From positions 70,406,984 through 70,470,983 of the forward strand of contig NC_088300.1 of assembly GCF_032854445.1 (NCBI RefSeq): DNA of 64,000 nt. Reading direction: 5' to 3'. Position 1 is the stretch's first letter, and every line of letters begins with the position of its first letter. The position numbers and the translations under genes are program-made. The DNA is from Liolophura sinensis (lineage: Eukaryota; Mollusca; Polyplacophora; Chitonida; Chitonidae). Below the pieces are notes generated by a model that searched no databases, was not told where the DNA came from, and was given only the letters and a program-made list of their open reading frames with translations. Below, in pieces: positions 43,801 through 52,800 of the stretch.

Positions 43801-46800
43801 TATTTTCATGGATATTCTCCAAAAATATGTTTGTGGGAACTAATTTTTGCGTATTTAAGAGAATACTGAAAAACACATCTTAAAATCTTAAAATTTTCCA
43901 AGATATAATATGGCCAAATTATTCAAGCACATAAAACAGGTCTATCATGGGTGGCTTTAATCCTCCTTTGTTTCCTGCGGTGTCGCTAATCCTTGTGATC
44001 TGGATCAGAGATTAAAACAATGGTGAATGGATTATTACTATGTGACATGATTACCTTCACACCATGAGCAGTACTAAAACAGGTGTCACTTCTTTTCGAA
44101 TCATTGATGATTTTAAACCCCTGGCAAAGTAACCTGTCACCTTTTGAGCAGTTCAACGCAAAACATATTAATTCACCATTATCAGCGCCAGTCACTCATT
44201 CTTTACCAAGCAACATGGTAAGTTCTGCATTGCTTTCAGTTTTAATCGTCCTCTGAAGCAGGTCAGAAAATACAAACATTGCCGTAGCTGTCAAACGGCC
44301 ATTGTGTTGTTGTACACACTTCACAGTTTGTTAGAAGCTCACTCATTGGACCAGAGGAGACACACAGCCAATGGGATAGCTTGTATCAGAGCGACATTCA
44401 TTAGAAGCCAGCACATGCTGGTACTTACTTTTCTTTCACTTTACAGGCATAGTGAAGATTGATCAAAATAAAAGACGAATAAACTCCCACTTTGTTTTAT
44501 ACCCACTAAGCCTTAGCACCAGAGTTTGTATATATATAAACCCTAATTTCCCTTCCCTGCTGTCAAAAAATTTAGCTGGCCCGTTGGGCTTTGTTAGAAC
44601 AACTCCCGTCAGCCTGGCAAATATTTCACTTCATTATTACTACTACCTGTAGTATATGATTCAATATTGGATATTTTTTTCGCTGGAATTATTTTTCGCA
44701 GTAAATTATTAACCGCAAAATCTGCAAAAATTAGTTCCACGTGAAAATTAAGTACTTCACAGTACGTGGTACAAACCTCACCATCAGATAACAAAACTGG
44801 TGAAGTACAAACCTCATTATCAGATAATGAAACTGTTGTAGTACAAATCCCATTATTAGATAACAAAACTGAAGTAGTACAAATCTCATTATTAGATAAC
44901 AAAACTGACGTAGTACAAATCTCATTATCGGATAACAAAACTGATATAGTACAAATCTCATTATCGGATAACAAAATAAATGTACATGTAGTACAAACCT
45001 CACTATCAGATAACAAAACCGATGTGCTACAAATATCATCAGAAAAAAAAATGATGTAGAACAAGCCTCATTATCAGATAACCAGATGTGGTACAAACCT
45101 CATTATCAGACTCCTCAAACTGTACATTCACACCATAGGTTTCATCAATGTTCTCATCTGCAAAAGATGTTTGAGACATAAATAAACATCAATGGCATCA
45201 TCTAAAAATGCACATTTTCTCTTACACATTCTTGAAAATTGACACTTTTGCTTTACCCTTACAAATAACTCTGATAACTAAGCCATAATTTCTCGACTTG
45301 AGAACTCTCAACACCTACTTTTCATACTTGTTCAAAACAACCTTCAGCGATAGGAAGAAGATGAATAGTACCTGAACCGGCACAGGATTCTCACACTTCT
45401 CCGAACATTCAGTCACGGCTCCCACTACCACACACGACAAATCCTCACCTGTTTGCATTTTCTCTTCTGTTCCCCAATCTGTGATTTTCTTGCCCAGGTT
45501 AACTAGAAGGGCAAATCGCTCCTCAGGCATTCCACTGAGCAATCCCTCAACTTCCTTCTTACGCTCCTTATCCTTCATCTTGTCATTTTTCAGCACAGCC
45601 AGCACCTCGTCTGCAGCTCCACACAAAACATCACGGGGCTGCACAACACATCAATGACTCAAATATGTATGTATGCTTGGGGTTTAATGTCATACTTAAC
45701 AATTTTTCAGTCATATGACGAGGAGTCGTCGTCATCAGGAATTCAAATATGAGAAACATGCTTATTCCAACAGACTAAATGCAACTAAAAGGGGATATTT
45801 CACCTAATTTGAATACTTATTACAGTAAAATGATACAGTACCAAAGAAAGTATTCCCATTCACTGACTCTATTCAAGCTGCTTACCTGATCTCCAAGTGC
45901 GGCCTGTATAAAGCTGAGCAGAACCTCATACGTCTGTCTGGTCTCCTGTGTTTTGGGTCTGTACAGGATTCCCACCATGTCATCAATACCCTCAGAGAGC
46001 AAAGTAGTTCCTTTCATTTTCATCATGTCACGTTGAGCCTCGTCACGTTTCCTACGTCTGGAAAACAAAGAAGTAGAGCTTAAATCCGGACCTTACATGC
46101 AGTTACCAAAAAAATCATGTTCTTCAAAAAAAAATTTAATAACTTGCAGTCAAAGAAACTTATTTCACATTCGTAATATAGAAACTTTTGGCAGCGCAAT
46201 GGTCAGATGCTGACAGAATCTCTTCATTAACATCCAATACCACACTAGAGTGCAGGTCTGAATCCTTTCTTTAGAAATCTACAAACATATACATATCAGC
46301 TGAGTACTGCTTTCTCAAATATCATTCTCCATCATTTCTTTCTCACATATCATTCTCCATCATTTCTTTCTCACATATCATTCTCCATCATTTCTTTCTC
46401 ACATATCATTCTCCATCATTTCTTTCTCACATATCATTCTCCATCATTTCTTTCAGTTAAGGCAGTAGGATTTCTAAATAATTTGCCCGCGAACATACTT
46501 AGCTTTCTTTTCCTCCATCTGTGGTGGAATAGTTCGCTGTGCTTTATCTCCCATGCGGGAGCCAGTCAGCTTTCCCACAAGGGAGACAACTTCACCAGTG
46601 GGCTCATCTCGTGCTCTTCTGTCGATCAGAGAACGATCAACTTGGAGTACAAGATTTGAGTTCTGTAAACAGAAGAAAAGACAAATATGTTTCCAATCAA
46701 GGTCTCAAATTTGTGCAGTTCTCATGGATCGTTTTTGGTTCAGTGAGACTCAGAACAGGTAGTTGATTATGAGCACAACTCAATTTACACAAGGGAAGAT

Positions 46801-49800: not shown

Positions 49801-52800
49801 ATTCCAATATGTATGACAAAATCAAACCATTTCCGTGCACAAGTTGGTCACCATTTTTTGTCTGCCGTACTCGCCATCATGTGACCTGGGGATTGTGGCT
49901 GGAAACGTCATAAGCTGTCAAGCTATAAATAGCTTGCATGTCAACAAAGGCAGTTTAAAATGATGTCTAATTTGACACGGTACTAATCACATGAAATTTA
50001 CGGTGAGAATAAGATACAAGTAATGAGAAAATCAAGAAAATCTACAAATAGTGAATTACCCCATGGAGTATTAACTATAATGATCTTTAAATAGACAGGC
50101 TACATATTTAGAGAGATAAAAAACACTGCTACTTTATGTATCAATGAAGTGTCAATTTTTCCATGACCAATAAGGATGAATCTCAATGACGACTGAAGTC
50201 TTGCCTGGCACACATCTCCATGTTCAATCCTTGAACTAAAAACACGCAATGAAATGTTCACACCTGGCAAAGAAGTTTTTTAATTTCGCGCTTATAAGCT
50301 ATTTATCAAACTTCGGACACCCTCGAGGCAAACTGCGTGCTTGCCTTGAAAGGAGCTGAAGACATTAGCACCACCTTTACGTCAAGGGAAGGAAACCAGC
50401 CAGACCACATGTGCTCACATGCGCTAAGCTAATGTCAAAAACAGAACGATCAGAAGCTGAAGTGGGTCAAAGAATTAGTGAGGACCGATTTGGCAGAGAG
50501 CAAAGAAGATTACTATGTGTCATGTTTGATTTCATACTCTCATTCGCTTCCAAAAAATGCGTTCTAAAAATCTAATTAACGCTGTGGATCATGAAGATTT
50601 TCGCAAAAGGCAGGGCTCTCCACACTTTTCGCAACACCTGTATGATGGGTTATGCTCAGGTGGCTGCCCAGCGCAGCAAGGTGAGGGTTAGCAAGAGCCG
50701 GGGGTCTAGGGGCCTGTTGCCCCCAGCCACATCCGTGCAACATGCTCTACAATACATTCTCCGTCCTTTTTAAGCCATTTTCTATTGCATGTCACCAATT
50801 ACTTATCACTGTCACTGTACAGTGATTTTGTGATATTCCCAAGACAATAAGTAACACTGGAAGCCTGGGAACCATTCATGTCGTACAGTTTGTATGTCCG
50901 ATAATGATTCAGTCAGTTGAAAGAATGTACAGAAAACATGGTCATTGGGAAAGAGGTAAGTAAATAACATTTGACTTTACACCCTACTTTACTTTATTCC
51001 GTTTTTGAGTCACAGGATTCATAGGAGACCAATTTAGACACCATCAACAGGCTGTTAAATTCCAAAACTAAAAGAAACTCAATCCTAAGGCAACTTTAGA
51101 GCACAACTTCAGAAAATTCAATTCAGACCTAGCTGTGTAAGTTATGACATATAGATGTAGTAATTAGTTATTCAAGTTTCCAAAACAGACAAAAAACTGA
51201 ACTCATTGCTGAAATAAACTCAATTCAGTAAATAGAAAGAGTTTGAATTCAGTTCAAAATAAACTTTAACTGTACATCCTAATATGGAAATGATGGCAAG
51301 CATGTCATATATCAAAATGTGCCGTCTGCCACCTACTTTATGATAACAATAACTGCAATACAAATCACCAACAATAATTTGTCAAAAGAACCCTGGGCAC
51401 ACCCTTTAAGTTCAGCAAGGGTTATCAGCTACACCTGAAAAATCCCTCAAGATAATGCTAAAAACAAATACAGCCATAATGGGGACATTGGGAAGCAAAT
51501 CAAGATACAATTGTCCTACTTCATTCTTGATTTCAAGATGACAGTCCCCATAAACTAACATGTTTACAGATGATTTAACTGAACAACTACAGGTATGTCT
51601 TGAAATTCTAAAAAGTTCCCACTCCTGTTGTATGAATTCTTAGCATTATTGTTCATGTCTTTTTCCAGGTGTAACTGATAACCATGGATTGCCATAGAGT
51701 TAGAGGGTTAATTTTAAGTTCTACTGTTTTGTAAAATGATTTTTATTTAGTTAGAATTATCATAAAGTAGGTGGCACAGGGCATGTTATGATATAGAACA
51801 TTTTCATGTTGGGGTAAATAGCAAAACATTATTTTGAACTAAATCCCACTTTGGCAGACATTACCGGTTACTAGACATCTCTGTCACTTCGCATAATAAT
51901 AAAAGTCTCCATCTGAGCTGCTTGAACTGTCTTCAGAGTCAGTGTCATCGTTAGACGGATTGATTGGTTGTTGGCTAAAGCATCTGCCGAAGTAATCTGC
52001 TGTGAAGTTCGCTTCATAATGTAAACACTTACTACAATGACGAAAATCCACGCATAGCGTAGCCAGTATGTTTTGTGTTCCCTGATTGGTTTGTCAACCG
52101 TCGTGTAGCCACATGTTATATTATTGGGCCATGATATGTGTACACACACAAATAGGTCTAGCGGGAAGTTCTTCTGGAGTTCCAACTAATTAAGACCAGC
52201 ATTTGTCAACCTATGAGTTGTCAATAAAGATCAGGGTAACAGATCGCTTGCAGGCAGCCCTTTCAATTCACCATTTTGCCTTAGCCAAAAAAAAATGCTG
52301 AGGCAAAATAATAATTCCTCGGCAAAAATAAACTTACCTTGGCAATAATATTAAAGATAATAAATACAAACACATTAATTCAGCACTGACTGTCAGCTAG
52401 AACTGGTTTAGGACTAGGAGGTTTAGCTATGTGTCATCTGTCACCCTAGGACAGCTTTGCAATGAATTCACAATTTGGTTACATGGTCAGTTTTACAGAA
52501 ACATTACATTTTTTGATAACGTGAGTACCTCGAACCAAATTGTCGGAAATTTGTGAAACAAAAACAAAAGTTTCCTGAATTCAGTGAAAAGTTCTCAGAG
52601 TAACAGTCCTGGCAAATTTTGCACACTATCGAAAGGACTGAACCATCGTTGGCAAATTTACATTCATTACAATCAATACCCCATCCAGCCACAGTCCTTT
52701 TTCTTCACTTTTTCTTTTCTGACAGCCACGTGGTGTGTCACCTTCCTGAGATCTCATGCCACGGATCATCCCTGTACTGAGCATTGTACTATTTTTATAC

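What the first reader, a model, noticed from the sequence alone, without database searches (positions are those of the whole stretch)
46156..51594. Gap flanked by two near-identical blocks: likely unmerged alleles, not a real duplication
Copy 1 (46156-48665) ends at the last base before a 200-N gap, and copy 2 (48866-51594) begins at the first base after it. Unique sequence continues only on the outer sides. A genuine tandem duplication would not need its borders to coincide exactly with both contig ends. Two overlapping haplotype contigs joined by a placeholder gap explain this directly. The few-percent differences and the VNTR copy difference fit allelic variation in a highly heterozygous animal. 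If so, SNRNP200 intron 1 is about 2.7 kb too long here.
Basis: partly seen in the sequence, partly recalled or inferred. Interest (0 to 1): 0.7.

Follow-up and report, generated by a model that had tools for sequence, protein, structure and literature searches.

The report
Unmerged overlapping allele contigs around gap
The apparent 2.5 kb duplication around the assembly gap is almost certainly the same stretch of one gene written twice, once from each parental chromosome, because two overlapping assembly pieces were not merged; it is an ordinary artefact, but it falsely doubles one coding exon of an essential splicing gene.

Summary
The last 2,510 bases before the only N run (48666-48865) align end to end, with no overhang, to the first 2,729 bases after it. 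The copies differ at 54 of 2,458 aligned bases (2.2%) and by 14 indels, one of 225 bp. Each block holds coding exon 2 of SNRNP200/Brr2 (46499-46662 and 49192-49356, minus strand); exon 1 lies on the right contig only, exons 3 and 4 on the left. The exon is 164 nt in copy 1 and 165 nt in copy 2, with identical splice sites. Of five splice patterns tried, only exon1-copy1-exon3-exon4 is open (human Brr2 residues 1-182, 2e-84); copy 2 alone, both copies, two 164-nt copies, or neither give stops. A real tandem duplication would therefore break this essential gene unless one exon were always skipped. The error class is well known: duplicated overlapping contigs, false duplication, heterozygous overlap. 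No reads were available, so a real duplication is not formally excluded. Low interest.

The parts
46156..48665 (.). Block 1: right-hand end of the left contig (2,510 bp); inferred one allele of part of SNRNP200 intron 2, exon 2 and part of intron 1
48666..48865 (.). 200-N gap, the only N run in the window
48866..51594 (.). Block 2: left-hand end of the right contig (2,729 bp); inferred other allele of the same stretch
46499..46662 (-). SNRNP200 coding exon 2, copy 1, 164 nt, in frame
49192..49356 (-). SNRNP200 coding exon 2, copy 2, 165 nt: no substitution against copy 1, one extra base (T on the + strand, in a T run) that shifts the frame; splice-site hexamers identical to copy 1
53741..53785 (-). 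SNRNP200 exon 1 (coding part, 45 nt, start codon), right contig
45886..46057 (-). SNRNP200 exon 3 (172 nt), left contig
45449..45638 (-). SNRNP200 exon 4 (190 nt), left contig
   Evidence: Pfam BRR2_plug in the surrounding ORF
46310..46454 (.). 28-bp minisatellite, 5.2 copies (block 1)
49031..49157 (.). 28-bp minisatellite, 4.5 copies (block 2)
50365..50589 (.). 225 bp present only in block 2; no other match in the window at E 1e-3
51247..51844 (.). Imperfect inverted repeat (axis about 51546-51552); the left contig ends at the position matching 51594, in its central loop

Best explanation
Two contigs that truly overlap by about 2.5-2.7 kb were assembled from different parental haplotypes. In this stretch the haplotypes differ by about 2.2% in substitutions plus several indels, one of 225 bp, so their ends were not merged, and a scaffolder laid the contigs end to end with a 200-N placeholder. 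The locus should contain one copy, and SNRNP200 one exon 2. Shown: dovetail geometry, allele-like differences, gene order across the join, and the reading-frame conflict. Inferred: that the two copies lie on homologous chromosomes, how the assembler and scaffolder behaved, and that the extra base in copy 2's exon is a contig-end consensus error or a heterozygous defect.
For: Suffix-to-prefix alignment with no overhang on either side. 54 of 2,458 substitutions with 29 transitions to 25 transversions, plus indels of 11 to 225 bp: more like polymorphism than read error. Exons 1 (right contig), 2 (both) and 3 and 4 (left contig) lie in the order and orientation of one gene, so the contigs are correct neighbours. 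Exon 1-2(copy 1)-3-4 is open and its first 182 residues match human Brr2 residues 1-182 (2e-84). The four other patterns tried give stops: copy 2 alone at codon 55, both copies at codon 55, two 164-nt copies at codon 82, neither at codon 17. The exon has 0 substitutions in 164 aligned bases, as for two alleles under selection, but this is weak: about 3.6 are expected at the whole-block rate (P about 0.03) and only about 2 at the lower rate of the block's first 1,000 bp, where the exon lies (P about 0.13; hand arithmetic). Published work treats overlapping ends of neighbouring contigs as a common assembly error: in three of the four assemblies of PMC2864568 most such pairs were judged mis-assembled (5,698 of 5,947; 13,159 of 13,571; 1,094 of 1,366), in the fourth 8 of 22 (passage). 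See also PMC8081667 and PMC7203741 (passages).
Against: Copy 2's exon is frameshifted, so either one allele of an essential gene is broken or the base is an error; which one is unknown. Assembly breaks are not random and can fall at the edges of true repeats, so the coincidence of borders is weaker than uniform chance would suggest. The VGP paper describes the dovetail-with-a-gap geometry itself under homotype duplication, so the allelic class rests here on the differences, not on the geometry.
Confidence: 0.93

Rival explanations
1. A real, recent tandem duplication of about 2.5 kb in SNRNP200 whose middle the assembler could not cross, so that each contig happens to end at a duplication border.
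For: Two diverged copies side by side in the same orientation; assembly gaps do occur at real duplications (general knowledge).
Against: Both contig ends would have to coincide with both duplication borders. Two copies of a 164/165-nt exon with intact identical splice sites break the SNRNP200 frame unless one is always skipped.
Confidence: 0.04
2. Homotype false duplication: the same haplotype assembled twice, with the differences being uncorrected read errors.
For: The VGP paper says that homotype duplications often occur at contig boundaries, are about a read long, and after scaffolding give tandem copies with a gap between (PMC8081667, passages). 7 of 14 indels are single bases, and one of them shifts the frame of an exon.
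Against: Insertions or deletions of 225, 28, 22, 14, 13 and 11 bp, and nearly as many transitions as transversions (29:25, where uniform random error would give about 1:2), do not look like read errors.
Confidence: 0.03

Closest known systems
Duplicated overlapping contigs (DOC), Kelley and Salzberg 2010, PMC2864568 (passages)
   Same: Two nearby contigs whose facing ends align and that each carry further sequence on the outer side; read as two haplotypes of one place
   Different: Their test uses mate-pair distances, which are not available here
Heterotype false duplication with false exon gain, VGP (PMC8081667; PMC9516828; passages)
   Same: Diverged haplotype sequences both placed in one assembly; a gap between the copies; one coding exon gained within a gene
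   Different: Haploid read depth and discordant reads were not tested; the VGP paper describes the boundary dovetail with a gap under its homotype class
Heterozygous overlap as treated by purge_dups (PMC7203741; passages)
   Same: Overlap retained between primary contigs, mostly from homologous chromosomes
   Different: Depth criterion not tested

Membership tests
Heterotype false duplication / duplicated overlapping contigs | Facing contig ends align across a gap as a dovetail, unique sequence outside (shared with homotype duplication) | tested here: met
   zero overhang on both sides of the 200-N gap
Heterotype false duplication / duplicated overlapping contigs | Differences look like allelic polymorphism rather than read error | tested here: met
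   2.2% substitutions, 29 transitions to 25 transversions, indels up to 225 bp; against it, 7 of 14 indels are single bases
Heterotype false duplication / duplicated overlapping contigs | Gene order and frame make sense only when one copy is counted | tested here: met
   exon 1 right, exons 3 and 4 left, exon 2 in both; inclusion of both breaks the frame
Heterotype false duplication / duplicated overlapping contigs | Haploid read depth on each copy and discordant or non-spanning reads | not testable with these tools
   no reads held; no genome held for the window
Homotype false duplication | Both copies from the same haplotype, differing only by read errors | tested here: not met
   indels of 11 to 225 bp and the transition share do not fit read errors; k-mer depth not testable
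True tandem segmental duplication | Both copies on one molecule | not testable with these tools
   the gap separates them; no reads
True tandem segmental duplication | Compatible with function of the host gene | tested here: inconclusive
   two exon copies break the frame unless one is always skipped; skipping cannot be ruled out without RNA

The most novel reading that the evidence does not exclude
A real intragenic tandem duplication has given SNRNP200 two alternative second exons, and a working protein is made only when the frameshifted copy is skipped, because including both copies, or that one, creates a stop codon: a possible frame-controlled switch of Brr2 level.
Probability: 0.02. Interest if true: 0.5.

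Novelty: already known. Interest (0 to 1): 0.08.

Why it matters
Mostly as a warning for users of this assembly: an automatic gene model may carry a false or frameshifted second exon in an essential splicing gene, and intron 1 may be about 2.7 kb too long. The locus also gives one sample of allelic divergence in this animal, about 2.2% substitutions if the reading is right. The frame test (a duplicated exon whose length is not a multiple of three, with intact splice sites) is a cheap sequence-only check for false duplications when reads are not at hand.

Tried and rejected
Real tandem duplication and homotype duplication were considered and judged unlikely (see rivals). A mobile-element origin of the 225-bp difference: it has no other match in the window at E 1e-3, and I saw no flanking target-site repeat by eye at its ends; it may be a deletion in copy 1 as well as an insertion in copy 2. 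Cause of the contig break: the left contig ends in the central loop of an imperfect inverted repeat (51247-51844, self-score 159 bits; highest of 100 shuffles of its 2-base units 41.1). It is one of three places where a scan of 627 windows of 598 bases gave 100 bits or more (14 windows, starting at 35101-35801, 51201-51301 and 54601-54901). This was noticed after the fact. Against it, the other contig end is not in such a structure: 45300-48665 has only inverted repeats of 12-20 nt (8 pairs). It is a lead only. Which scaffolder writes 200-N gaps: one search with three terms gave 0 papers, so no claim is made. tRNA genes: 0 in the window. The species was not identified.

Full report
Observation. 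The window contains one run of N, 200 bases, at 48666-48865. The 2,510 bases that end just before it align over their whole length with the 2,729 bases that start just after it. The aligned blocks begin at 46156/48866 and end at 48665/51594, that is, at the first base of the right contig and the last base of the left contig; in a comparison of 40001-48665 with 48866-58000 no similarity continues on the outer sides. In a global alignment 2,404 bases agree and 54 differ (2.2%; 29 transitions, 25 transversions), with 14 indels, of which 7 are single bases and the largest is 225 bp. Substitutions are uneven, 12 in the first 1,000 bp of block 1 and 42 in the rest. The 28-bp minisatellite has 5.2 copies in block 1 and 4.5 in block 2. 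The finding is therefore correct as observed; it did not mention the 225-bp difference or the coding exon.

What the stretch is. Block 1 and block 2 each contain coding exon 2 of SNRNP200 (Brr2) on the minus strand: 46499-46662 (164 nt) and 49192-49356 (165 nt), with the same acceptor and donor hexamers. Exon 1, with the start codon, lies at 53741-53785 on the right contig. Exons 3 (45886-46057) and 4 (45449-45638) lie on the left contig. Joined as 1-2(copy 1)-3-4, the frame is open, and the first 182 residues match residues 1-182 of human Brr2 with E = 2e-84 (4 distinct PDB sequences matched, all named as the U5 200-kDa helicase or BRR2). The gene thus runs across the gap in correct order and orientation, so the scaffolder chose the right neighbours.

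Frame test. Copy 2 of exon 2 has no substitution relative to copy 1 but one extra base in a homopolymer, which leads to a stop at codon 55. Including both copies also stops at codon 55. Even if copy 2 were 164 nt like copy 1, including both would stop at codon 82, because 164 is not a multiple of three. Skipping both stops at codon 17 (all). Hence if both blocks lay in tandem on one chromosome, the gene would work only if an exon with intact splice sites were always skipped. Brr2 is essential for splicing (established knowledge, recalled). This argues against a real duplication independently of the contig-end geometry.

Alleles or errors. Substitutions at 2.2% with nearly as many transitions as transversions, and indels of 11, 13, 14, 22, 28 and 225 bp, are not what read errors in one haplotype would give. 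Zero substitutions in the 164 aligned exon bases fits two copies both under selection, but weakly: about 3.6 are expected at the block average (P about 0.03) and about 2 at the lower rate of the first 1,000 bp, where the exon lies (P about 0.13; hand arithmetic). Divergence at this level is plausible between haplotypes of some outbred animals: the start of an abstract gives 3.2-4.2% heterozygosity for sequenced amphioxus species (PMC12862219, search listing). The species of this window is not known to me.

Mechanism. Most likely the assembler kept the two haplotypes apart at facing contig ends and a scaffolder joined them with a placeholder gap. Kelley and Salzberg described such pairs as duplicated overlapping contigs and judged most of them mis-assembled in three of four assemblies (5,698 of 5,947; 13,159 of 13,571; 1,094 of 1,366) and 8 of 22 in the fourth; pairs not so judged were either consistent or lacked data (PMC2864568, passages). 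The VGP paper separates heterotype duplications (diverged haplotypes) from homotype ones (one haplotype twice), and describes overlap at contig boundaries with a gap between under homotype (PMC8081667, passages). So the geometry says 'false duplication', and it is the differences between the blocks that say 'alleles'. The purge_dups paper says that overlaps kept among primary contigs are mostly between homologous chromosomes, that high heterozygosity as in most insects and marine animals causes them, and that scaffolders using long-range data do not, to its authors' knowledge, handle them (PMC7203741, passages). Ko et al. list false exon gain within a gene as one of three main consequences (PMC9516828, passages), which is the consequence here.

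Why the break is here is less clear. The left contig ends at the position matching 51594, within the central loop of an imperfect inverted repeat, 51247-51844, and just before an inner right arm that begins at 51612. The inverted repeat is far above shuffled sequence (159 bits against at most 41.1 in 100 shuffles). The other contig end, at 46156/48866, has no comparable structure near it (8 pairs of 12-20 nt in 45300-48665). The link was noticed after the fact and is a lead only.

Consequences. A gene predictor might also include copy 2's exon and break the protein.

Limits. No reads, depth, optical map or second assembly could be examined; no whole genome is held for this window. The allelic reading is an inference at about 0.93. 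The extra base in copy 2's exon may be a consensus error at a contig end or a real heterozygous defect; I cannot tell which.

Noticed in passing
51247-51844: Imperfect inverted repeat of about 600 bp (62% over 632 columns); the left contig ends in its central loop. No other copy in the window at E 1e-3 apart from the part held by block 1.
   Followed up: partly
54962-55156 and 35420-36108: Two other strong inverted repeats; the second coincides with a minisatellite of about 88-bp period that is partly self-complementary.
   Followed up: no
16378-16889, 35421-36122, 36250-36934, 39534-40055, 44769-45110: SNRNP200 introns hold several minisatellites (offsets of about 72, 88, 70 or 35, 63 and 36 bp).
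   Followed up: no
16953-17194, 20937-21042, 24562-24709, 27918-28131, 30745-30896, 37290-37386, 38945-39214, 41736-41978, 60133-60268, 62650-62871, 63196-63289: A dispersed repeat of about 90-270 bp in both orientations, about 69-92% alike (from the first 80 rows of the self-comparison, so copies may be missing), possibly a SINE; ARAGORN finds 0 tRNA genes in the window.
   Followed up: partly
15236-53785 (minus); 57917-58408 and 59008-59463 (plus): SNRNP200 (Sec63 Brl domain and BRR2_plug matches) lies head to head with a tetratricopeptide-repeat gene (TPR matches in two plus-strand ORFs; a third ORF, 56469-57239, matched 0 families). The name TTC1 for it is recalled from memory.
   Followed up: partly
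8896-9117 and 9876-10094 (plus): ORFs matching Pfam FAP206 (the first above, the second below its cut-off), possibly a CFAP206 gene on the 3' side of SNRNP200.
   Followed up: no
46805-46926 and 55336-55452: A weak match (69.6% over 125 columns) between block 1 and a place beyond the blocks; possibly an old dispersed repeat.
   Followed up: no
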